DNA from: a virus
DNA: 21,220 nt
Direction: 5' to 3' (one strand)
Virus record (IMG/VR): IMGVR_UViG_3300032753_000201
Coordinates: 1 to 21,220 of that record
Each line of letters opens with the position of its first letter. Within the stretch, counting starts at the first letter, position 1. Position numbers and translations under genes: made by a program. A model generated the notes under the pieces. That model ran no database searches and was not told the DNA's origin. It worked only from the letters and a program-made list of their open reading frames with translations. Of this stretch, positions 1,400 to 13,615 are shown in pieces.

Positions 1400-1671
1400 T
1401 ATTTTCCCTCCGTAACTTTTTCCAATATGCGAACACGAACCGAAAGATCGTTTATTTCTTTCGTAAGTTCATCACGCAAATGATACCGCGCTTCCGCAGA
1501 AATAGGACTATCCGTCGGGATACCCTGAGACGTGATCAGCATAGGCATTTTGCTTTCTAAATCTTGAACTTTTGTATTTAAAGTAGCGATTTGAGATAAC
1601 AGCCAACCAATCGCTGCAATCAAAATGGGGAAAACCATATTGATCAATTTTGATAAGTCAAAATGATCCAT
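1399..1671 (-). CDS. Small membrane-anchored coiled-coil protein in lysis cassette
   Basis: This 90-residue protein has one transmembrane helix at about 10-28 (INMVFPILIAAIGWLL) followed by a heptad-like coil (QIATLNTKVQDLESKM). A Pro-rich link is followed by a second charged helix (about 58-88). It has no cleavable signal. The layout suits an inner-membrane spanin, a holin partner or an XhlA-like accessory protein, and I cannot choose between these. No lipoprotein partner (outer-membrane spanin) is visible nearby. The ATG overlaps the upstream stop (TAATG), with AAGGG eight bases before it. It resembles in layout the 77-residue protein at 16356-16589 (short hydrophobic helix ending GWL, then a coil), which may be a distant paralogue. 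Confidence 0.65.
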   Translation of the reverse strand: MDHFDLSKLINMVFPILIAAIGWLLSQIATLNTKVQDLESKMPMLITSQGIPTDSPISAEARYHLRDELTKEINDLSVRVRILEKVTEGK

Positions 1672-4600
1672 TACACCCGCCCTTGCATAATCCTGAGAGC
1701 CTTAACGATGTCGTCGTCATGCATGTTCAGCATTGGCTTGGTTCCATCGTCTAATGTACGTTTGGCGGCCTTGAACAGTTTATCTACTTCCGGAATGCGC
1801 CCGCCAGTAGCCCGTTTTGGCCGAGTTATAAAACCACCTTTGTTTGCTTCTAAATCAGATTCATGTTTCCGAGATGGGTCAAAATTTGCAAACCTACCAC
1901 GAAGTGGAAACGTTTGGCCTTTTGGCATGTCCTCAGGAAAAACAATAAAAGCGGTTTTATCTTTAGCGCCCTTTGTTTCAGACGAGCCGGTGTTTTGATA
2001 TTTTACACCAACATATCCTTGATTGCGTAAATGGTTGCGATAAGATTGTACGGCAAACTTACGATCATCAGGATTATATGGTTGTAATCCAAAATTTTTA
2101 ACAAACCCCCACATGTTGTTAGCGCCGATACCGGAAGAATCACGATACATTTCACCAGAAGTAAGTTGATGATGAGCTTTACGCGCTTCCTCTTCTGGTA
2201 CGTGCCATTGTTCCATTAAGTCTTTTACAAATAAATTTGGGTGATGCGTGTATGCATGGGACATTATTTCATTCCGAATTGCCCAATCGTCATGATATAA
2301 GACACCCATATCTGGAATATATGGCTGGTGTATTTGATGAAATTTATCTTCGGATGCCATTTTTAATGGCATGACACGTCCGCCAGCATAAGGATCGGCT
2401 CCTCTCGCTGTAAAATACTCATTGCTGGCAACAGCGGGATCTTTTGCAACGTGGATACCTAAACCGCGAGAAAGAGAATAATCATCTCCACGATCTTCTA
2501 ACCGCGATATTGGTTGTTGTGTCCCATGATAAACATCCACTGGCAATTCATTTTTATAATCTACTTGACCACCTTCTTCATAACCCACACGCCCACCCGC
2601 AGCGCGGGATGGGACAAAATTCTGGCCTACTGTCGGAGCAGCAGCAGAAACCCTAATCATATTTTTTGCCATCGCAGAGAGAAGGCGCGGATTGGATTGA
2701 AGCATTTTTTGCGCATCACGAAACTGTTCAATGTCGGTAGATGCTAACTTGTCAGCCAACCTTTTTGCATACCTCTGCCCCATAAAATGGTCAGCTATGC
2801 TATAAACGTATTGCGCCATTGCTGCTGGCTTGGAGTACAACCAAGTAGGAACAAGGTTCAGTTTCTGAAGCGAACCGTATAAGTTAGGATCGCTCCTACC
2901 CGCACCCTTCGCAAAGTTCGCAAGCGTATTGCGGAACAAAGCTTCTGTCTTTACGAACCGTTCCAGCTTCTCATAGCCGTTGTTTTCAAAAATGTTCCGA
3001 ATAGCTTTTGCCGTATAGTTATTAGGGTCAAAGTACCGTTGAAGCATTTTGGTGTTCAAGCTGCCATCCGAGTTGCGGGTCTTGGTAAGCAACGATGCAA
3101 GAACACCTTGTCGTGCAAGGGTTTTTTCTTGCGGGGTCATATTGATAGTAGAATTGTACGCATTGGTCTGCGCCAATGTGTTACGATCCTTATCCAAAAG
3201 TCGTAGGCCGCCAGTAAATGCGTCTTTTTCTCCGAAGATATCTGCGGAGTTTTTAATCGCATAATCCAGTTCAGGGCTATAATTGGCATTCTTTGGATCG
3301 CGAAGAGGGTCCATAAGAGTTCCAGCAACATTCTTGATCGTCTTACCGACGCCGCCTTCTGTTCCAGCGGGAGAAGTGAATGCCGCATCTTGCATCGCAC
3401 TGAGTTCGCGACGAACCTGATCAATATATTTCATATTGATATTGTTAGGATCAGCCAGCACCATCTGAGGCGGAGGAAGACTTTCAATCGTTGATTTTAA
3501 CTGATCAACGAGATCATTCGTCTGCGCTTTGGCTCTGAGTTTAGCCGCAGCAGTATTATCCGCAGGGTCAACGGCAAACATGCTTTTCAGGCTGATTGGT
3601 TTGATTTTAGTCAAATCGTCGTACGTTTTGATTCCGTAATCATTGAATGTCGAAACAATATCAGGCGGAAAATCAAGGTTAGAAATAGGCGTATCGCCCG
3701 TATTCATAAACGGGGATTTAAACGCTGGACCCATTTCTCTGGTTAAATTTACTTCTGCGTTTTTAACCGCATCTTGGAATACGGGCTTATCCAACAAGTT
3801 ATCCCACTGCGGAAGCCATGTACCCTTACCCAGTTCTGGGTTTTTAATCGGCGCCCAAGCAGCTTCATTACGGTTCTGAAATTCTTGTGCCGCGTCAGCC
3901 TGAAGTTTGGCGGCATTCAGTTCAATACCTTTATTCATCTCCGTAGCGAACTCATCAAACCGTTGGCCGCCATCGGCAAGCCTTTCACGCAACTGATCCA
4001 TAAGATCGGATACAGCATCAGGGTTTTTCTTTGCTATGTCAGTCAATGTCTGTTGGAACTTAGGACCACCAATGTCAGCACCCTTAATAGGTTGCCCGTC
4101 TTTTGCCGCTTGGATCAAGTCAGCAATAGGCATCTTCGATGTGCCGTTCGCCTCATCCAGCAGAAGAGAATTGGAAAGATTGGTAAGTGCCGCGTCACCC
4201 GGTGCGGTCAGTGCCTTCATCCAATCAGGAGCAATGGCGGATGCGCCTTTGGCGATGCCCTCACCGACAGCACCAAGCCCAAGACCTAAACCAGCGCCAA
4301 GAGCGCCGGATGTACCAATATCAGCCTGTTCAGATTCAGGCTTTGAACCAATCAGCTTTTCTTCTGCCGCCGAGCCAGCACCAAGAGCGCCAGCCTCAAC
4401 ACCCATGCCAGCTATACGCGCAACAGTAGGAGCGGCCCCAAGAGCCTCCGCAGCGCCAGCAGCAGGGCCAGCAATTTCACCCGCAAACGGAATGAGGAAC
4501 TGGGAGCCAATATCAGCCGCCAACTGTGTCTTTGGATATTGCTCACCGGAAGCACGACGAAGGGCTTCGTATTGGGCTTTCAGGTCTTCCCTGCGCTGAC

Positions 4601-4937
4601 CGAATGTATCGCCTTGTCCGTACCCTGCCGCCGCAGCAATGTCAGTCCCAGCTTCACGGAGAGCGGGGCCGACACCCAACATTTCACCTGCGCCAGTAGC
4701 GATAGCACCTGTGTATCCAAGGTCTTTTGCCTGTTGTTCTGCAACAGGCATATTCGCTTGGATTTTGGCTTCGTATGGATCGGTCTGTGCGGGTGACGCC
4801 GCCTGTTTATTAAATCGTGCAGCCATGGCTTGATCAAATGGGTCAGGCGCAGCTTCTTGATCAGCATTGGGCTGATTGCTCATCCTTTGCTGCATCAGTG
4901 CGTCAAATGGGTCCGCATTTGAATCAGGTGTTGCCAT
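1671..4937 (-). CDS. Large ejection-type virion protein with C-terminal ADP-ribosyltransferase-like domain
   Basis: This 1088-residue protein lies between the transglycosylase virion protein and the lysis genes. The N-terminus has three copies of a short D-P-[FY]-[DE] repeat (DPFDALMQQR, DPFDQAMAAR, DPYEAKIQAN). Gly/Ala-rich hydrophobic stretches follow at about 140-200 and 215-240, suitable for membrane contact, then a long helical middle with Phe/Gln/Asn-rich parts to about 770. GG linkers (AAGGRVGYEEGGQV) lead into a domain at about 797-1010 with VYHGT, GLGIHVAKDPAVASNEY and GYVGVKYQNTGSSE then AFIVFPED. That order recalls ADP-ribosyltransferase-like domains of phage polyvalent proteins (H, S/T-x-A-Y and a late E). 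The tail has TGGRIPEVDKLFKAAKRTLD. I start it at ATG 4937, two bases after the upstream stop, not at the in-frame TTG at 4955. The ejection role is inferred from order and size; the ART call rests on motifs only. Confidence 0.7.
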   Translation of the reverse strand: MATPDSNADPFDALMQQRMSNQPNADQEAAPDPFDQAMAARFNKQAASPAQTDPYEAKIQANMPVAEQQAKDLGYTGAIATGAGEMLGVGPALREAGTDIAAAAGYGQGDTFGQRREDLKAQYEALRRASGEQYPKTQLAADIGSQFLIPFAGEIAGPAAGAAEALGAAPTVARIAGMGVEAGALGAGSAAEEKLIGSKPESEQADIGTSGALGAGLGLGLGAVGEGIAKGASAIAPDWMKALTAPGDAALTNLSNSLLLDEANGTSKMPIADLIQAAKDGQPIKGADIGGPKFQQTLTDIAKKNPDAVSDLMDQLRERLADGGQRFDEFATEMNKGIELNAAKLQADAAQEFQNRNEAAWAPIKNPELGKGTWLPQWDNLLDKPVFQDAVKNAEVNLTREMGPAFKSPFMNTGDTPISNLDFPPDIVSTFNDYGIKTYDDLTKIKPISLKSMFAVDPADNTAAAKLRAKAQTNDLVDQLKSTIESLPPPQMVLADPNNINMKYIDQVRRELSAMQDAAFTSPAGTEGGVGKTIKNVAGTLMDPLRDPKNANYSPELDYAIKNSADIFGEKDAFTGGLRLLDKDRNTLAQTNAYNSTINMTPQEKTLARQGVLASLLTKTRNSDGSLNTKMLQRYFDPNNYTAKAIRNIFENNGYEKLERFVKTEALFRNTLANFAKGAGRSDPNLYGSLQKLNLVPTWLYSKPAAMAQYVYSIADHFMGQRYAKRLADKLASTDIEQFRDAQKMLQSNPRLLSAMAKNMIRVSAAAPTVGQNFVPSRAAGGRVGYEEGGQVDYKNELPVDVYHGTQQPISRLEDRGDDYSLSRGLGIHVAKDPAVASNEYFTARGADPYAGGRVMPLKMASEDKFHQIHQPYIPDMGVLYHDDWAIRNEIMSHAYTHHPNLFVKDLMEQWHVPEEEARKAHHQLTSGEMYRDSSGIGANNMWGFVKNFGLQPYNPDDRKFAVQSYRNHLRNQGYVGVKYQNTGSSETKGAKDKTAFIVFPEDMPKGQTFPLRGRFANFDPSRKHESDLEANKGGFITRPKRATGGRIPEVDKLFKAAKRTLDDGTKPMLNMHDDDIVKALRIMQGRV

Positions 4938-4939
4938 GA

Positions 4940-7900
4940 TTAATTCACCAACCAACGGGAAAGATGTTTAACGTCTGGGTAGTATTGGTTTACCTTAGCA
5001 TCAAATTGAGCGCGTGTGTAATGTCCATCCATCAATTCCGTAACCAGATTAACATTTTTGCCCTTAGCGTTCTTCCAGCTTAGGTCGGGACTCATAAGGT
5101 CCTGAAGGGCATTTTGTTCACGGTTATACTGATCAGGTGGATAAGCTGCTTGGATAGCCTGTTCAGGGTTACCCATGCGAGCAGTTTTCCCACCAAAGTA
5201 ATTGGTGGCTTGTTGCGCGTCGCGGGCCATGACGTTCTGACGCATAAGGCTCGTGAAAACCTTATTTGCTGCTTCTGGCTCCAACGCGGCACCCGGAAGA
5301 GCAGCTTCAGTAGCATCAATAGTACGTGCGGCAGCGTTATGAGAAACAGAACCGGCCTGTTGATTAGCCATCAAACGGGCAATCTTCTGTAACTCTTGCG
5401 ATGCGACGACAGGATCATCAGACACATTATATCCAGCAACACGCGCTGCGGTAGCCGCCGCACGGATTGTCGCCAACCGGAACGCACTACCAGCACCCAT
5501 CGTACCCCAACCATACTGTTGGGCAACGACAAGGTCATGCGCCATCGTGCTGGCGTCACCAAGCGATGTATTGGCTATCTGGGCGGCTTTATTGGTTTCA
5601 TCCGCATAACCTTGGTACTCACCCTTCAGATTTTTAACGGTATCTGGAGAATAAATTGAATTACCAACCTGTTTCTTCAGGGAGTTAGCATACTGATCCA
5701 AAGTTGCGGCTTTCTCATTCAGCACATCACCAAGTGCCGCAGGAGCGTTACCAGCAGGAGTTGCGCCCGCAGCTTGTTGGCCGCCAGCCTGATTAGGTTG
5801 TGGCATGTCAACGTATTTGTATTGCGGGTTCTCAGGAGTGCCAGTTGTAAAGAGAGCATTACCACCAAAAGGATTTGGAGTAAGACGTTTTAGTTCTTCT
5901 TCAGCACGGGTCAAACCAGCCGTCGCATTTCCAAGATTGGCTTGTCCGTAATCTTTTGCGGACTGTGCCTGTGTCGTCATAGTTTCGCGTTCTTGACCTT
6001 GACCAGCAAGAATGGCGTTAGCGTAAGCATTAGCGGAATTGCCAATATTCGCTCCCGGAGTCGCACCAGCCGCCCAGAACGCGATGTTAGCCAACTGCCT
6101 CTTATCCATAGGAGGAGGTGCAATATAACCAAATCCGGGTTGAGCAGCATCCGACATCGTGCGTGTAGCATCTTGTGCAACTACGTTGTTTGGAACGCGC
6201 TGTGCAGATGCATTTTGTTGCGTTGTTGTTTCGACCTCATCATCTCCAGTTGCTGCTAGATCAGCGACAGTTGGTCTGTTGCGAACAACAGGAGGTATGC
6301 TTGATCCACCGCCACCTTCATCTGGACGAACCCGTGGAATAATAGGTTGGGTTTTAACAGGCGCAGATGTTGCCGGTTCACTAGGAACGATACCGGCATT
6401 TTTACGGGATTCGACATCCGTAACATCAACCGGGACGGAAACACGATTGCGATTTTCCAAATCAGGATCATATTCGTGTTTAATACCGGGAAGAATTCCA
6501 TGAATTACTGGAGCAGAAAATGTCGATAATTTAACATTATCCCAATTTACATTTGATGGGTCTGGTGCAGCACGGAAATCATCAGGCAAGGGCTGGTTTG
6601 CAGTTGCATCTGTTGTTCCCATATCGGGAACATAACCAGTGGAATCCGGATCAGATTCGTCAACAGGGCGCATAGGACCGCTATCAGAGATACCCGTACC
6701 ATTGGCGGCATGAATACGGCCACCTTTGTTTGCACCTACAAGACCAGATGTACCAAGTGCCTCCAACATAGGAGAAAGAACGCCAGCACCGGAGCCAGCA
6801 TAATCTTGTGCGATCTGTTTTACGGTGTTTTGATCAGGCATCCCATAATTCATGCTGATCGGAACATAACCGCCTGAATCATAATGATGGTCATGGGCGC
6901 GAATAAATCCGCCGCGTTTTTCACTTTCATGGTCTGAAACGAATGGGCTATTCCCTTGCCCACCAAAGCTGCCAGATTTATCCGAAGAAGATTGTACAGA
7001 TGGGCCATTTCCTTGACCGCCAAACGATCCGCCTTGGTCATTACCAACGGAACGATCTAAACCAATATTTCCGGAATCAGGTGACGAAACAACACCCATA
7101 GGGCTATGGCCTTCACTTGCAGCACTTGGCGCAGCATTATTTTCCGTAGACTGATCAGCCGTTTGCTGTTGAGCGATTCCAGCTAATGCAGTGGAATATG
7201 CTGGATTAGAAGGAGGTAATGGAACAGATGGCGATTGAGCATTAACAACTACGCCTTCTGGCGTTTGATAACGCATAGGAGGAGAAATCCCCGCATTTGG
7301 ATCAACCAAACCTGTAGCTAATACTTTCTGCGTATAAGCACCCTGTGTTGGGTCCTGACCAGCAGAAATAGCGGCATTATAAGCCCCAAGACCCATGTTA
7401 TAAGCAGCGATAGCATCAGGAACGGAGCCAGTGTAATTGAACAAATTAGAAAGATGTTCTTGCGCCAATTGCGCCGAGATGGTCGGGTCCGCTCTCATGC
7501 TGGAATCGTAACTTATACCCAGTGATTTAGCCGCATCCGCTGCGGCAGAATCGTGCATTTGGAAAGCACCTAGTGCCTTTCCACCATCACCAATAGCCGT
7601 ATTTGGATTAGCAACACCGCCAGTTTCTACTTGGCGGATAGCTGACATAACGCCAGAGGTTGTATCGTTATTGCCAACAGAAGAAGTTGTTGATGCTCCA
7701 AGGTCAGCAGTATTTGGTCCAACGTAATGAGGGGCTACATCGCTCGCAGCCGCAGCATTAGCGGATTCCACAGGCGCTTGGGAAACAACACCTGTATAAC
7801 CGGTTTCCGTTGGAGTTTTATTCTGATTGGACGTGCCTTCAAGCGTTGCGGCAATACCGCTGACTAACCCGCCAAGAGGACCACCCCAGTTAAATGCATT

Positions 7901-9337
7901 GCCTTGACCGCCACCAGAATCATAAGGGCCATAGCCACCGCCACCAACCGGACCATTGCTGCTGGTCGCATCAGGTGAATATTCAGCATTTTGTGCCGTA
8001 ATATTTTGATGAAAATTAGCACCGCCGCCACTTCCTGTATTCGGGCCACCCTCAGGGAATTTGAATGCGGGGACTTTAGGCAAAGTGCTATCTGAAGAAG
8101 ACGATGCTGGCGTGGTAGATGTTGGTGCGTTTGTCCACGGCGTCGAAGGGCTTTGGAGCAAATCTAAATAATTCTGATAAGCCGAATCCAATGCTGTTTT
8201 CGAAACATTAGGATTTGCAGCAAGCTGTTCGTAATTTTGATAAGCCTGAATAATAGAATCAGATGTCGCAGGAGTTCCACCAGCAGCGTACCCAGTACGG
8301 CCACCCCTGTCGTAATTAACACGCCCGCCTGTGTTTAAAGCAGGAAATACGCTTTGTACTGCTGAACCAGCACCGCCTAAAACTGAACCAATTCCTGATC
8401 CGACTGAACCGCCAGCAGCATTGATTGAACCAAGGCTGCCTATGGCACTTAGTGCATTATACGGGCTATAAGTAGGCGAATAGCCTGTCGTCGTGCCGCC
8501 CATTGCAGGAGCCGCACCAGATGCCAAACCAGCATAGTAGCTGAGTTGCTGATAAGGATATGCCTGTTGCTGTAGGTATTGCTGATATGCGGTAGATAGA
8601 CCTGCCTGTTGCTGCTGTTGTTCAGCAGTACCATATCCATACTGTGCTTGAGCCTGTTGCAATGCCGCCGCTTGGCCTTGAGTACCAAGATTCGCAAGGT
8701 TAAGACCAGCATTTGCCATAAGCTGGCGGTTCTGCAATTGCGTTGCCAGATCAGTTTGCTGCTGGGTATTGAACTCGTTTTGAGCCTGAGAGTAACCCTG
8801 ACCAAGCAAGTTCGAAATTGTCGCGTTGTTCGAAAGATTTTGTTGGCGAGCCAAATCAGCTTGAGCAATACCCGCACGGTCGCCACCAAAAGCGCCCTGT
8901 TGAACGGAGTTACCCAAAACTTGTTGCTGTTGCTGAGCATTGGTCTGATTGATGTTTGCAACTGCTGAGTTGACGACATCATTCATGTACGGATTCATGT
9001 ACTGATTGATAGCCGGTTGCGAAAACTGCTGCATTTGCATAGGGGTAGCAGCAGCCCCAGCAAGCCCTGTAGCCGCTTGAAAATATGGGCTAGTATAACC
9101 CTGTAATCCGGAGATGTTTTGACCCGCTTGGACCTGATTGGGGTCCATAGGAGCAACCAATCCCGGATTGTAATTGGCGAATTGAGCCGCCGTAGCGGGT
9201 GTATATTGAGGGTATGGTTGGTTAGATTGCGTAGCCGCACGGTTTAAAATATCCGTAAATGCAGTTTCAACCTGAGGGTTGGCTGAATAACTTGTTGACG
9301 CCGAAGAGCCAAACAGCGATGCACACATTGAACCCAT
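4940..9337 (-). CDS. Giant internal virion / ejection protein with embedded lytic transglycosylase domain
   Basis: This 1465-residue protein has an N-terminal third rich in Gln, Ala, Asn and Tyr (about 1-300, with QQQQQ runs), probably helical. A GG linker follows near 335-352 (GGRVNYDRGGRTGYAAGG), then Ser/Thr/Pro/Gly-rich low complexity. At about 563-680 sits a lysozyme-fold transglycosylase-like domain: IRQVETGG with the likely catalytic Glu at 571, GAFQMH near 590 and AAYNMGLGAYNAA near 645. After it come a tandem peptide with GSFGGQGN twice (near 765-800), more GG linkers (near 807-823 and 864-878), a disordered Pro/Asp-rich stretch, and a helical Ala/Gln/Asn-rich C-terminus (about 1080-1465). 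A wall-cutting domain in a giant neck-cluster protein recalls T7 gp16, which opens peptidoglycan during DNA ejection. The start ATG has AAGGG eight bases upstream; the sequence begins MGSMCASLFGSS. Confidence 0.82.
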   Translation of the reverse strand: MGSMCASLFGSSASTSYSANPQVETAFTDILNRAATQSNQPYPQYTPATAAQFANYNPGLVAPMDPNQVQAGQNISGLQGYTSPYFQAATGLAGAAATPMQMQQFSQPAINQYMNPYMNDVVNSAVANINQTNAQQQQQVLGNSVQQGAFGGDRAGIAQADLARQQNLSNNATISNLLGQGYSQAQNEFNTQQQTDLATQLQNRQLMANAGLNLANLGTQGQAAALQQAQAQYGYGTAEQQQQQAGLSTAYQQYLQQQAYPYQQLSYYAGLASGAAPAMGGTTTGYSPTYSPYNALSAIGSLGSINAAGGSVGSGIGSVLGGAGSAVQSVFPALNTGGRVNYDRGGRTGYAAGGTPATSDSIIQAYQNYEQLAANPNVSKTALDSAYQNYLDLLQSPSTPWTNAPTSTTPASSSSDSTLPKVPAFKFPEGGPNTGSGGGANFHQNITAQNAEYSPDATSSNGPVGGGGYGPYDSGGGQGNAFNWGGPLGGLVSGIAATLEGTSNQNKTPTETGYTGVVSQAPVESANAAAASDVAPHYVGPNTADLGASTTSSVGNNDTTSGVMSAIRQVETGGVANPNTAIGDGGKALGAFQMHDSAAADAAKSLGISYDSSMRADPTISAQLAQEHLSNLFNYTGSVPDAIAAYNMGLGAYNAAISAGQDPTQGAYTQKVLATGLVDPNAGISPPMRYQTPEGVVVNAQSPSVPLPPSNPAYSTALAGIAQQQTADQSTENNAAPSAASEGHSPMGVVSSPDSGNIGLDRSVGNDQGGSFGGQGNGPSVQSSSDKSGSFGGQGNSPFVSDHESEKRGGFIRAHDHHYDSGGYVPISMNYGMPDQNTVKQIAQDYAGSGAGVLSPMLEALGTSGLVGANKGGRIHAANGTGISDSGPMRPVDESDPDSTGYVPDMGTTDATANQPLPDDFRAAPDPSNVNWDNVKLSTFSAPVIHGILPGIKHEYDPDLENRNRVSVPVDVTDVESRKNAGIVPSEPATSAPVKTQPIIPRVRPDEGGGGSSIPPVVRNRPTVADLAATGDDEVETTTQQNASAQRVPNNVVAQDATRTMSDAAQPGFGYIAPPPMDKRQLANIAFWAAGATPGANIGNSANAYANAILAGQGQERETMTTQAQSAKDYGQANLGNATAGLTRAEEELKRLTPNPFGGNALFTTGTPENPQYKYVDMPQPNQAGGQQAAGATPAGNAPAALGDVLNEKAATLDQYANSLKKQVGNSIYSPDTVKNLKGEYQGYADETNKAAQIANTSLGDASTMAHDLVVAQQYGWGTMGAGSAFRLATIRAAATAARVAGYNVSDDPVVASQELQKIARLMANQQAGSVSHNAAARTIDATEAALPGAALEPEAANKVFTSLMRQNVMARDAQQATNYFGGKTARMGNPEQAIQAAYPPDQYNREQNALQDLMSPDLSWKNAKGKNVNLVTELMDGHYTRAQFDAKVNQYYPDVKHLSRWLVN

Positions 9338-9348
9338 AGTCTTGACCC

Positions 9349-9822
9349 TTATTGTACGTGGTTTTCTTGTTTTTCATCATTATGATTATAGATGAAAAAC
9401 GCGCCAGCTTTATGCATTTGCCGTTCTAAAAGTTTAATTTTGGCTTCTGTGCGAACATTGGAAACAATGCCCATCAACAATGGGATACCAACCATATCCG
9501 AATAGTTTTTAGCGAACGAAATTAGGGACTTTGCCCGCGTAGAACGACGATGTTGCGGTGCAACAAAGTTAAAAACGTCGTTTAAGCACCAAGTTTTAGC
9601 GTACCAAAGTTTGTCGATAACCAGACAAACGGCGGCTTCTAAGCCATCTTCGCCATCAATAACGCCGATAATTCCGTTTTTACCCTGCAAAACATTATTT
9701 ACCATGTCGCGAACGGCATCGTAGTCCATTTCAAACAGACCATTTTCCTCATGCATCAATGCAAGAAGAACCATGATGCTATCTGCGTCTTGCGGGGTAG
9801 CCAATCTTACGGCGTAATCCAT
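9349..9822 (-). CDS. GNAT-family N-acetyltransferase
   Basis: This 157-residue protein has the usual GNAT layout. The first strand and helix are VRLATPQDADSIMVLLALM (5-23). Central strands follow around GIIGVIDGEDGLEAAVCLVI (50-69) and NDVFNFVAPQHRRSTRAKSL (81-100), where the basic HRRSTRAKSL stands in place of the acetyl-CoA loop (R/Q-x-x-G-x-G/A), with Ser/Thr replacing the glycines. The C-terminal strand is PLLMGIVSN then a helix and FFIYNH. The substrate cannot be read from sequence. It lies between virion genes, in a position where other phages also carry acetyltransferases; it may modify a virion or host protein. AAGGA lies nine bases before the ATG. The altered acetyl-CoA loop leaves a small doubt about activity. 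Confidence 0.75.
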   Translation of the reverse strand: MDYAVRLATPQDADSIMVLLALMHEENGLFEMDYDAVRDMVNNVLQGKNGIIGVIDGEDGLEAAVCLVIDKLWYAKTWCLNDVFNFVAPQHRRSTRAKSLISFAKNYSDMVGIPLLMGIVSNVRTEAKIKLLERQMHKAGAFFIYNHNDEKQENHVQ

Positions 9823-9855
9823 CAGAAATTTTCCTTACAATGACTTTGCTCGGTT

Positions 9856-10461
9856 CTAGTCGCGTCTTGGACCGGGAAGTTTGCTAAGTGTCTTAACCAG
9901 ATGCTTCCGGACGCCAATAACGAAGTTGTCCAGATAATCATGGCCTTTTTGCATACTTCCATTGCCCAGTTTGCGGACAATATCAGGATGAATAACATAT
10001 TCGCCGCCAGCAGCGACAATCGGCACAGGACGGTAGTTACCAGCAGTAACGGGACCACCTTCAGCTTTTGTCGGAGAAAACGTCGATGATGCGGAGTTTG
10101 CTGAAGCAGGGTTATTTCCAATGCCAAAGAGTTTTTGCATTTGGCCATATTCGCCCAAACTAGGCGGCGTTCCGGGATAAGCGGTAGGAACCTTATTGCT
10201 TACGCCCCAAGGACCGGATGTAAACATATTGCTGATCAACTTGCTGCCAGCCAACGTGTTCCCTTCACCAAGACCGGATACAATGTCAGCGGGAAGGACG
10301 TAGGAGCCTTCCAAAACGTTCATTGGAATATGATCAGTACGCCCGCCAACAGCCATGGTAATAGGCCCTACATGGCATGGCGTGGACTTTTTGCGGGAAA
10401 TCTTGTCGGCAGCTTCAATTGGGTTGCCACCGGATTTATATGAATTTAACTGGTTTGACAT
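9856..10461 (-). CDS. Virion-cluster protein with internal duplication (YVLPADIV repeat)
   Basis: This 201-residue protein has no recognised enzyme domain. Two related halves are visible: 39-80, with GGRTDHIPMNVLEGSYVLPA then DIVSGLGEGNTLAG, and 135-181, with GGPVTAGNYRPVPIVAAGGE then YVIHPDIVRKLGNGSMQKG. A Pro/Gly/Ser linker joins them. The [EG]-[SE]-Y-V-[LI]-x-x-D-I-V-x-x-L-G-x-G unit is common in uncharacterised proteins of environmental phages and sometimes in tape-measure or ejection proteins. The basic end (RKHLVKTLSKLPGPRR) may contact DNA. GGAGG sits five bases before the ATG. It could be a small ejection partner of the two giant proteins downstream; that is inference from order. The 57-base AT-rich spacer upstream (10462-10518) shows no clear hairpin or promoter. 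Confidence 0.65.
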   Translation of the reverse strand: MSNQLNSYKSGGNPIEAADKISRKKSTPCHVGPITMAVGGRTDHIPMNVLEGSYVLPADIVSGLGEGNTLAGSKLISNMFTSGPWGVSNKVPTAYPGTPPSLGEYGQMQKLFGIGNNPASANSASSTFSPTKAEGGPVTAGNYRPVPIVAAGGEYVIHPDIVRKLGNGSMQKGHDYLDNFVIGVRKHLVKTLSKLPGPRRD

Positions 10462-10912: not shown

Positions 10913-13039
10913 TTAGTATTTCCCGTCCGGTGCTGCGCGATACCTGATGCCACCTAACCGCCAGAACGTACCCGTATCTTGGGACGAAATATTGATCGCC
11001 ACCAAACGCGCCCTGATGCGGCATGAGATATACTCAGTAGACTGCGTCATTGGAAAAGTAGCAGAAAATACGGAGTTGCTTGGATAGCCAGAGTATAAAC
11101 CCGTTGTTACAGGGGCATCAGTTGCATAATTTGTCCAATAAATGGTGATGTAAACGGTGGCATTTTGGTTGCCACTATACGTTCCCCATTTCATGTCAGG
11201 CCAAATTTGGTCGATAAACATGATGTTATCGCCTTCCGCCACACTGAAAAAACCAGTCTGCATGGACGAAAACATTGGCAATGTCGTCGTGCCGGAAGCG
11301 GCATCGTATCCTATTTCATGCTGATATAAATAATTGTCAATACCAGCGCCGATAGGAGGGCCAAGAACAGATTGGTCAATCCAAGCACTACGCCCAAGAG
11401 AACCAAAATCCCACTGCTGGATAGCAGCGTTAAATTTGACATAACTGTCGTTTTCGCCTGTGCTGCTGTTGACAGAAGGGTAGTACCAAGTGATTTCATT
11501 AAACTGAGAATTGACAGCACATCTGATATTTTGGGTATACGGAATCCCATTTGAACCGACTCCCGTGTTCAAGTTTTGGAAAATAACATCCCAAACTGGG
11601 CATGCTAAGGCTTGCGGGCCATTACCAGCATTCATAAAAAACTGCTTCTGGGACATCCAGAAAATGGCATTATTCAACTGTCCAACACATTTACGGGAAA
11701 TCGCACCGCAATTGGACCCAATTTTGTTGAACCCATAAACCAATGGAGAGCCAACATATTGCATTGCCCAAAGGTCTAAGTCGGTCCAAATCAACCCCTG
11801 TTGTGGGCCTTGTATACACGTAACAATTTTGGAGCCGGATGCGATGCGATAAGAACCCGCCTGATTGGTGGCGGTAGCAATCCATGTCGTACTATCCGCG
11901 ATGTCAGACCAGCGAATCAAAAGAGGGTCTTGTTGCAGGGTAAAGGACGAACCCCATGCGATAACCTGCCGTTCTGGCATAGCTACAAAAATGCCATCGT
12001 TAACCAGCGGAGCAGAGCCACTTACAAGTTGTGCATTTTGAATTTGGGTATTCGGCGTCCATGAATAAACTGCACCACCGACAGGGCAAGCAATCAAGTT
12101 TTGCCCAAAATTATCCAAAGTCCAATCTGTCGCGGTAATAGGAGTACCCGGAACAGAAGGTTGCGTGACACCGGAGCCGAATCCTCCTGAGCCAAACGCA
12201 CCAACGCCGAAACCCGTTCCAACTTGGCTTGGGCCAACAGCAATAAAAAATTCAGAATTGATATTGCCGCTGTTGATAGCCGTTGGACCGGCAGTTGAAG
12301 TTGCCGTATTGGTTGGGGCAAAAGTAAATTGCCCGGAAGTCAAACTTCCAAGTGTGGCCGGGGTATCAATAACCGTGTAAAGGCCAAAGAGGGTTATTCC
12401 ACCAATTGATGTAGATACACCAATGTAAAATTCACTTCCCGGATTATACGTATTATTTGCTAAATATGCGGTGACAATCGATGATCCATTGGCCGTCGTA
12501 AACGTATATGATGCCCCAGCATTGCTAACAGTTGCGGTGGCAGGAGTAGATGCTGAAATCGTATACGATGTCCCTGACGCAGTTAAAATTTGATAAGAAC
12601 CCGTCAGAATAAGGCCGCCAACAGACACCGGAGTTACATAGTAAACATAATCTAAGTTTGATGCACTTATGTTCGAATCAATTACCGAAACGGTATAACT
12701 TCCGCTTGTTGTCGAAAAATTAGGCGAAGAATTGGTAACCGTTGTCTGCGGCGTAATAACAGAATTGCTTCCGTTTGTAAGGACGTTAAGCGATGTTGTG
12801 CAGCCGACAGCAAGATGGTTAATGGCGTTAAGATCGGCCCAACCCTTTAAAGCCCTGACAGGCGCAGAATAGGGAACATTGCGGTAAGCTACCCACCCGC
12901 CAAGTTTCTGAGGCAACCCCATTTGGTTCCTATCTGGCATAAACCGGATAAGATTAGACGACGAAAGGGCCGCCTCATTTAAGGTTGGCGTTTTGATTAC
13001 ATCTACGCCGGGAATTAAACGTAAAGTGCTATGAGCCAT
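10913..13039 (-). CDS. Tail hub / DNA-stabilisation-like neck protein with repeated beta inserts
   Basis: This 708-residue protein opens with TLRLIPGVDVIKTPTLNEAA, SNLIRFMPD and LPQKLGGW (5-49), a start seen in many podophage neck proteins that are compared with the P22 gp10 hub/stabilisation protein. The first 80 residues continue into WADLNAINHLAVGCTTSLNV. Residues about 108-270 hold two or three diverged copies of a Ser/Thr-rich beta unit (YVYYVTPVSVGGLILTGSYQ at 131-150 against FYIGVSTSIGGITLFGLYTV at 204-223, then FFIAVGPSQVG). From about 300 a beta-propeller-like part follows (LIACPVGGAVYSWTPN, LIWTDLDLWAMQYVG, AIFWMSQKQFFM), ending near FWRLGGIRYRAAPDGKY. It starts at ATG 13039, directly abutting the stop of the homing endonuclease. 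The structural role is likely; equivalence to gp10 is moderate. Confidence 0.68.
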   Translation of the reverse strand: MAHSTLRLIPGVDVIKTPTLNEAALSSSNLIRFMPDRNQMGLPQKLGGWVAYRNVPYSAPVRALKGWADLNAINHLAVGCTTSLNVLTNGSNSVITPQTTVTNSSPNFSTTSGSYTVSVIDSNISASNLDYVYYVTPVSVGGLILTGSYQILTASGTSYTISASTPATATVSNAGASYTFTTANGSSIVTAYLANNTYNPGSEFYIGVSTSIGGITLFGLYTVIDTPATLGSLTSGQFTFAPTNTATSTAGPTAINSGNINSEFFIAVGPSQVGTGFGVGAFGSGGFGSGVTQPSVPGTPITATDWTLDNFGQNLIACPVGGAVYSWTPNTQIQNAQLVSGSAPLVNDGIFVAMPERQVIAWGSSFTLQQDPLLIRWSDIADSTTWIATATNQAGSYRIASGSKIVTCIQGPQQGLIWTDLDLWAMQYVGSPLVYGFNKIGSNCGAISRKCVGQLNNAIFWMSQKQFFMNAGNGPQALACPVWDVIFQNLNTGVGSNGIPYTQNIRCAVNSQFNEITWYYPSVNSSTGENDSYVKFNAAIQQWDFGSLGRSAWIDQSVLGPPIGAGIDNYLYQHEIGYDAASGTTTLPMFSSMQTGFFSVAEGDNIMFIDQIWPDMKWGTYSGNQNATVYITIYWTNYATDAPVTTGLYSGYPSNSVFSATFPMTQSTEYISCRIRARLVAINISSQDTGTFWRLGGIRYRAAPDGKY

Positions 13040-13615
13040 TTATACAGCCCTTCTAAGCGCATTGTTGCGCCTTAAAGACGCAGTGCGATTGGCTATATGT
13101 TCGGTTGTTAATTTTTTACCTTTCAACGCTGCACTTATTTTTTTTCCGAAATCTGGCGCTCTTTTCCCAGAGGCATTTTTATTGCCATAATTAGCAAGTG
13201 ATAGCTTTCTTTTGTGTTCTTCTGTTTTTTGCAAACCAAGCATGGATTTGCTTTTTTTTAAACGAACTTCTGGAGTATTGGCCAATAAGGCAGATTCTGA
13301 CATTTTTTTACGCGTTTGATCAGAATGTTTAAATCCTTGGATGCCATCTCCCCCATTTGTTAAATTTGTCAATTTATACCCTATATGTCGCCACATGGAT
13401 ATTCTGGATTGCTCCAATCTGAATGCAGCAATTTCCGACAAATTTTCTTCAATTATTCTTATTTCTACATCAAGGCCCAAAAACTTTAATTTATTTTGAA
13501 TATTAAGATGATGTTTTTTTCTTCTTTTTAAATCATATGCACGTTTTTTTTGCCCCTTCCCAACATAAAAAGGCATATTTGTGTCTGGTCTCCAATGTTC
13601 ATAAACATAAAACAT
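13040..13615 (-). CDS. Free-standing GIY-YIG homing endonuclease with NUMOD3 repeats
   Basis: This 191-residue selfish endonuclease would cut relatives lacking the insertion, so that it spreads by repair copying. The N-terminal GIY-YIG domain shows FYVYEHWRP and FYVGKG (the two conserved tyrosine/glycine strands, residues 2-21), then the conserved Arg (R25 in KKRAYDL) and the likely catalytic Glu (E68 in AFRLEQSRI), and LTNGGDG at 85-91. Behind it lie three or four NUMOD3-like DNA-binding units (KHSDQTRKKMSESA, TEEHKRKLSLANYG, APDFGKKISAALKGKK, TTEHIANRTAS). The gene is visibly richer in A+T than its neighbours, which fits lateral arrival. It lies three bases after the adaptor stop and abuts the next start codon without a gap. 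All key residues appear intact, so it is probably active. Confidence 0.9.
   Translation of the reverse strand: MFYVYEHWRPDTNMPFYVGKGQKKRAYDLKRRKKHHLNIQNKLKFLGLDVEIRIIEENLSEIAAFRLEQSRISMWRHIGYKLTNLTNGGDGIQGFKHSDQTRKKMSESALLANTPEVRLKKSKSMLGLQKTEEHKRKLSLANYGNKNASGKRAPDFGKKISAALKGKKLTTEHIANRTASLRRNNALRRAV
13048..13054 (-). promoter_or_regulatory. Ribosome binding site for the 708-residue gene, inside the endonuclease end
   Basis: AGAAGGG (13054-13048) lies eight bases before the ATG at 13039 and is coded by the last codons of the homing endonuclease. The inserted gene therefore supplies the binding site for the essential gene after it. Confidence 0.6.

What the first reader, a model, noticed from the sequence alone, without database searches (positions are those of the whole stretch)
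1900..2549. ADP-ribosyltransferase-like domain on a probable ejected virion protein
The C-terminal part of the 1088-residue protein shows VYHGT, then GLGIHVAKDPAVASNEY, then GYVGVKYQNTGSSE and AFIVFPED. This order recalls ADP-ribosyltransferase-like domains in phage polyvalent proteins. The protein sits after the transglycosylase virion protein and has hydrophobic Gly/Ala segments, which suits ejection into the cell. Together this suggests a virion-delivered effector comparable in idea to T4 Alt, here fused to an ejection protein of a podovirus-like phage.
Basis: partly seen in the sequence, partly recalled or inferred. Interest (0 to 1): 0.72.

Follow-up and report, generated by a model that had tools for sequence, protein, structure and literature searches.

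The report
Swappable ADP-ribosyltransferase cassette on ejection protein
An uncultured short-tailed phage carries, near the end of a protein it probably injects into its host, a domain with the fold of enzymes that use NAD to modify other molecules; related phages have nothing, or a different domain, in the same slot, so the protein looks like a carrier with exchangeable cargo.

Summary
Window 1671-4937 (-) encodes a 1088-aa protein with the four quoted motifs in order. Residues 794-1033 form a domain whose AlphaFold2 model (pLDDT 83.7) resembles the ADP-ribosyltransferase (ART) superfamily: all 25 PDB entries with Z of 5 or more are ART folds (ParT, MbcT, diphtheria toxin, tankyrase). I found 11 distinct divergent relatives. 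A model built from the 7 most distant recovers the window at E 1e-40, and one relative passes Pfam ART-PolyVal, although the window itself does not. His804, His829, Glu987 and Asp993 are invariant; the canonical strand-5 acid is Ala/Cys/Ser. It is a divergent sister of the ARTs of phage polyvalent proteins, not an Alt-type (R-S-E) enzyme.

The larger finding is the slot. A 92%-identical ejection protein in another phage lacks the domain, and other relatives carry different cassettes between the same Gly-Gly linkers, always followed by a conserved 47-aa tail. The same ART also occurs on a backbone only about 27% identical and on portal proteins. ARTs in virion and polyvalent proteins are already published, so this is a new variant of a known kind. 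Virion delivery, NAD use, activity and target are inferred, not shown.

The parts
1671..4937 (-). Ejection-protein gene, 1088 aa: backbone + linker + ART cassette + linker + tail
   Evidence: residues 30-358 match phrog_5880 (unknown function), E 5e-12
2568..4937 (-). Backbone, residues 1-790, mostly helical, Gly/Ala-rich hydrophobic stretch about residues 139-235
   Evidence: homologous in 14 proteins, 15-92% identical; all-helical model, low confidence
2562..2597 (-). Linker GGRVGYEEGGQV before the cassette
   Evidence: GG[RA][VI] occurs at the end of nearly every related backbone
1839..2558 (-). ART-fold cassette, residues 794-1033
   Evidence: model pLDDT 83.7, pTM 0.83; fold matches; held-out profile E 1.3e-40
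2526..2528 (-). His804 in strand 1 (YHGT), invariant in 12 of 12
2451..2453 (-). His829 in strand 2 (GIH), invariant, where classical H-Y-E/D ARTs have Tyr
2022..2291 (-). Helical insertion of about 90 residues (883-972) inside the ART core
   Evidence: four main helices in the model, pLDDT mostly above 90
1977..1979 (-). Glu987, invariant, in the loop before strand 5 (candidate catalytic or substrate-binding acid)
   Evidence: role inferred
1959..1961 (-). Asp993, invariant, just before strand 5
   Evidence: role inferred
1950..1952 (-). Ala996, at the position of the canonical catalytic Glu; Ala, Cys or Ser in all 12
   Evidence: equivalence to PARP/diphtheria-toxin Glu inferred from the YI[VI]F strand
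1818..1838 (-). Linker GGFITRP after the cassette
1674..1817 (-). Conserved C-terminal tail KRATGGRIPEVDKLFKAAKRTLDDGTKPMLNMHDDDIVKALRIMQGRV
   Evidence: 21 loci by search; 49-98% identical across cassette types; also ends the MW202675 protein
4940..9337 (-). Upstream 1465-aa DNA-ejection protein
   Evidence: phrog_4287, E 7e-12; SLT found only in syntenic homologues
10913..13039 (-). P22 gp10-like DNA stabilisation protein
   Evidence: phrog_3287, E 8.5e-59; 45% identical to the 'phage stabilization protein' of MW202675
13619..14329 (-). Head-tail adaptor (SU10 type)
   Evidence: PF24175, E 9.8e-15

Best explanation
The gene encodes the last ejection protein of a P22-like uncultured phage. 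Its backbone (residues 1-790) and C-terminal tail (1041-1088) are a conserved carrier, and residues 794-1033 are an exchangeable cargo domain of the ART superfamily, a divergent sister of the ARTs in phage polyvalent proteins. Proposed mechanism: the protein is packaged with the DNA and ejected through the tail; inside the cell the ART domain refolds, binds NAD+ with a pocket built around His804 and His829, and, using an acid from the loop before strand 5 (Glu987 or Asp993), transfers ADP-ribose to a host macromolecule before phage genes are expressed, either to redirect host metabolism or transcription or to disable a defence protein. Shown here: fold, family relations, invariant residues, optional slot, cassette exchange. 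Inferred: packaging, ejection, NAD use, catalysis, target.
For: Fold: model pLDDT 83.7, pTM 0.83; all 25 PDB entries at Z 5.0-7.6 are ART-superfamily proteins, the next row is Z 4.4 and clearly unrelated folds start at 3.3; viral-model hits include three named PolyVal ADP-ribosyltransferase and one named ART-PolyVal-like. Sequence: held-out profile E 1.3e-40; relative L062 passes PF18760 (E 7.6e-14 over the whole domain), and L039, L053 and L058 show weak partial hits. Weak hits of the family profile elsewhere fall on other ART domains. Function retained: H, H, E and D invariant in 12; dN/dS 0.20-0.40 between relatives close enough to measure. Slot: L005, 92% identical backbone, has no cassette; L015 also empty; L006, L020 and L022 carry PF18760 cassettes in the same place, with E 5.5e-12, 5.5e-18 and 7.2e-9; L023, L025, L027 and L028 carry a different cassette of about 580 aa; L039 has the window-type ART (56%) on a backbone only 27% identical. 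Delivery context: gene order and phrog_4287; relatives fused to portal protein (PF05136, E 1e-106).
Against: The window domain itself has no Pfam hit at E 1 and Foldseek alone finds no significant PDB match; Z values under 8 are only moderate. The canonical strand-5 acid is absent and strand-2 Tyr is His, so the domain could be a non-catalytic NAD or ligand binder, or do different chemistry (NAD hydrolysis or phosphorolysis, as MbcT does). No virion proteomics exists for this phage. The backbone matches no characterised ejection protein in structure.
Confidence: 0.6

Rival explanations
1. ART-fold NADase or NAD phosphorylase: the cassette destroys NAD+ instead of modifying a target, for example to starve the cell or remove the substrate of NAD-based defence.
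For: MbcT (Z 6.6) and RES toxins (Z 6.5-6.6) are among the top fold matches; the missing canonical strand-5 acid shows altered chemistry.
Against: Top match ParT is a transferase, and diphtheria-type transferases and tankyrase follow closely; sequence kinship runs to polyvalent-protein ARTs, which are proposed to modify proteins (PMC5512222). Fold alone cannot separate the two.
Confidence: 0.17
2. Catalytically dead ART fold used as a binding or structural module of the ejection protein.
For: Canonical Glu position is Ala/Cys/Ser in 12 of 12; some sister cassettes (L006, L008, L022: Y[FY]TGTS; L029: AYQGGP) lack even the strand-1 His.
Against: Two His and two acids stay invariant across members only about 25-33% identical to the window, which a scaffold would not need; the cassette is dispensable (L005, L015), so it is not a core structural part.
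Confidence: 0.15
3. The protein is not ejected: it is a head-interior or assembly factor, or a protein made late in infection that acts inside the producing cell.
For: No proteomic evidence; in L006 and L008 an ART is on a separate downstream ORF.
Against: Gene order of a P22-like ejection block, phrog_4287 next door, and fusion of the same ART to portal protein in L047, L059 and L060 point to virion residence.
Confidence: 0.2
4. Assembly artefact or frameshifted chimera joining two genes.
For: Related phages lack the cassette or split it off.
Against: Three other IMG/VR contigs hold the query region at 100% identity, and L039, L020 and L022 show the same backbone-cassette-tail layout in one ORF.
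Confidence: 0.02

Closest known systems
ART-PolyVal (PF18760), ARTs of phage polyvalent proteins, Tox-ART-HYD2 clade (Iyer et al. 2017, PMC5512222)
   Same: Strand-1 YHG[ST], G-x-[HY] in strand 2, GY.G...Y.N before a final [YF]IVF strand; large multidomain phage proteins near virion genes; one relative (L062) passes the Pfam cut-off
   Different: Window scores below Pfam detection; about 90-residue helical insertion; His instead of Tyr; no strand-5 Asp; cassette sits on an ejection backbone with a conserved tail
T4 Alt (virion-injected ART)
   Same: Idea of an ART carried in the head and injected with DNA
   Different: Alt is R-S-E type, a separate protein, and not related in sequence here
ParT / MbcT / RES toxin fold
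   Same: Best structural matches, Z 6.5-7.6
   Different: Toxins of toxin-antitoxin pairs; I noted no antitoxin beside the window gene but did not search for one
P22 ejection proteins gp7, gp16, gp20
   Same: Gene position after a gp10-like stabilisation protein
   Different: No detected sequence or fold match; carry no enzyme cassette
Polymorphic toxin systems (PMC3482391)
   Same: Conserved carrier with interchangeable effector domains
   Different: Phage virion protein; cassette is internal, with a conserved tail after it; immunity proteins not examined

Membership tests
ART superfamily (fold) | Split beta-sheet ART core | tested here: met
   Model strands 7-13, 35-38, 61-67, 73-75, 184-188, 202-206, 219-221; all 25 entries at Z 5 or more are ARTs. 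Moderate Z, predicted model.
ART-PolyVal PF18760 | Score above Pfam gathering threshold | tested here: not met
   No hit for the window at E 1; L062, same profile family, passes at 53.1 bits. Filed as sister subfamily, not member.
Tox-ART-HYD2 / H-Y-D or H-Y-E ARTs | His in strand 1 | tested here: met
   His804, invariant in 12
Tox-ART-HYD2 / H-Y-D or H-Y-E ARTs | Tyr in strand 2 | tested here: not met
   His829, invariant His in 12
Tox-ART-HYD2 / H-Y-D or H-Y-E ARTs | Asp or Glu in strand 5 | tested here: not met
   Ala996; Ala/Cys/Ser in 12; invariant Glu987 and Asp993 lie in the preceding loop
T4 Alt / R-S-E ARTs | Arg in strand 1, Ser in strand 2, Glu in strand 5 | tested here: not met
   His, His and Ala at those positions
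Polyvalent protein | Effector domain in a large phage protein encoded among virion genes | tested here: met
   one effector domain only in the window, two ART-like in L039
Phage ejection protein | Encoded in the ejection block next to gp10-like and ejection genes | tested here: met
Phage ejection protein | Present in virion and leaves it with DNA | not testable with these tools
   needs virion proteomics
Active ADP-ribosyltransferase | NAD+-dependent modification of a target | not testable with these tools
   needs assay
Polymorphic carrier | Same carrier with different effector domains | tested here: met

The most novel reading that the evidence does not exclude
A family of short-tailed phages uses its last ejection protein as a standard carrier: conserved backbone, Gly-Gly-coded linkers that let cargo domains be exchanged by recombination, and a conserved tail that serves packaging or ejection. 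Phages would thus keep a rotating set of pre-loaded effectors against host defences, a virion counterpart of polymorphic toxins, with a non-canonical H-H-E/D ART as one cargo.
Probability: 0.4. Interest if true: 0.7.

Novelty: new variant of a known kind. Interest (0 to 1): 0.5.

Why it matters
The empty and filled alleles of one ejection protein (L005 against the window) make a natural comparison for what a virion-delivered ART does. The slot gives a systematic way to find injected effectors: whatever lies between the backbone and the 47-aa tail. It also extends ARTs to an H-H active-site variant whose acid has apparently moved.

Tried and rejected
Pfam, PHROGs and NCBIfam on the window domain alone: no ART hit. 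phmmer and hmmsearch against PDB sequences: nothing meaningful. Foldseek against PDB: nothing at E 0.001; only MbcT at rank 2 made sense. hhalign of the cassette family against the PolyVal cassettes aligned only the last strand region (95.9%). No relatives of the cassette in 84,980 species genomes by pattern scan or in 50,697 phage records. tblastn of the backbone and of the upstream gene in phages: none. Backbone structure: pLDDT 60, no useful match. Considered and rejected: Alt-type ART (wrong triad) and misassembly (identical region in three other contigs).

Full report
Observation. The window is a complete IMG/VR record of 21,220 bases, a phage fragment. The gene lies on the minus strand, 1671-4937, 1088 aa. 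Three other IMG/VR contigs hold the query region (309 aa) at 100% identity.

What the domain is. Curated libraries do not recognise it. Iterated searches of viral contigs brought in 11 distinct relatives of the cassette at 25-56% identity (alignment A5). A profile built from only the seven most distant recovers the window at E 1.3e-40 with no decoy hit. One of those seven, in L062, passes the Pfam ART-PolyVal cut-off (E 7.6e-14); L039, L053 and L058 give weak partial hits. The AlphaFold2 model (pLDDT 83.7, pTM 0.83) gives, by VIA-align among Foldseek's candidates, 25 entries at Z 5.0-7.6, all ART folds: ParT, MbcT, RES, diphtheria-type toxins, tankyrase. Viral-model hits include three named PolyVal ADP-ribosyltransferase and one named ART-PolyVal-like. 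Foldseek alone was not significant against PDB, probably because a helical insertion of about 90 residues interrupts the core.

Active site. Invariant in all 12: His804, His829, Glu987, Asp993, with Asn982 and Thr983 in the NT motif. The polyvalent ARTs are described as H-Y-D (PMC5512222, section 9). Here Tyr is His, and the residue that would carry the strand-5 acid is Ala, Cys or Ser. Histidine at the second position is also visible in some Pfam-recognised relatives (GAHFG in L044, L062). I infer that Glu987 or Asp993, in the loop before strand 5, supplies the acid; the model was not examined for distances. Relatives close enough to compare show dN/dS of 0.20-0.40, with dS near saturation, so the domain is kept under purifying selection.

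The slot. In L005 the backbone is 92% identical but ends RAEGGRV and runs straight into KRATGGRIPEVD..., with no domain. L015 (61%) is also empty. L006 (64%) has a PF18760 cassette in the slot and a second ART ORF, whose ATG overlaps the stop of the first, ending in the tail. L007 and L008 (69%) have two ART-like domains on the downstream ORF. L031 has a small unrelated cassette. On more distant backbones (23-30%), L020 and L022 carry PF18760 cassettes, L023, L025, L027 and L028 a different cassette of about 580 aa that is homologous to a segment beside the ART in L056 (E about 2e-10), and L032 and L035 short spacers. L039 carries the window-type ART (56% identical) on a backbone only 27% identical by BLASTP, plus a second ART-like domain. 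Cassette similarity therefore does not follow backbone similarity, and the cassette is gained and lost. Gly-Gly motifs encoded by GGTGG lie at both edges, a plausible site for recombination; this is inference.

The tail. The last 47-48 residues are 49-98% identical across all cassette types and close the equivalent protein of MW202675. Its constancy beside variable cargo suggests a packaging or ejection role; not tested.

Delivery. The gene follows a block with an SU10-type adaptor, a P22 gp10-like stabilisation protein, an acetyltransferase and a DNA-ejection protein; MW202675 has the same order. The same ART family is fused to lambda-type portal proteins in L047, L059 and L060 (Pfam for L047). 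All this suggests virion residence. No tool here can show ejection. The backbone model is all-helical and of low confidence.

Known and new. ARTs in polyvalent proteins and their proposed injection are published (PMC5512222; PMC9503650), and the former paper suggests cassette recombination for a kinase locus. My literature searches, limited to open-licence papers, found no account of a polymorphic slot in ejection proteins. I rate it a new variant of a known kind.

Noticed in passing
L006:2890; L008:3757; L007:4687: An ART ORF starts with an ATG overlapping the stop of the ejection protein, so cargo and tail are made as a separate, probably coupled, protein.
   Followed up: partly
L006:2243-2800, L008:4603-5163, L022:6425-7015, L029:2717-3514: ART-like cassettes whose strand-1 His is replaced (YTGTS, YQGGP); possible inactive or altered versions.
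   Followed up: no
L047:692-4489, L059:827-6205, L060:872-6211: The same ART family fused to the C-terminal side of phage portal proteins, with short GG[KQE][WF] repeats around it.
   Followed up: partly
window 9349-9822: GNAT-like acetyltransferase (phrog_1249, E 5e-6) between virion genes; also in MW202675 at the same place.
   Followed up: no
window 13040-13615: Homing-endonuclease-like gene (phrog_314, E 2e-14) inserted between adaptor and gp10-like genes.
   Followed up: no
window about 3570-3670 (residues about 424-456): Backbone segment resembling a helix-hairpin-helix; RAD51C N-terminal domain appears among Foldseek hits (prob 0.96 but E 2.8). Possible DNA-binding part; placement by eye.
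   Followed up: no
window 4940-10461: Gly-Gly-Arg/Gly-Gly-x motifs recur in the upstream 1465-aa and 201-aa proteins as well.
   Followed up: no
MK942064 26334-26870 and three other Caulobacter phages; F116: The L020 ART cassette hits genes annotated 'lysis protein' or hypothetical (25-31% identity); the lysis annotation may be wrong.
   Followed up: no
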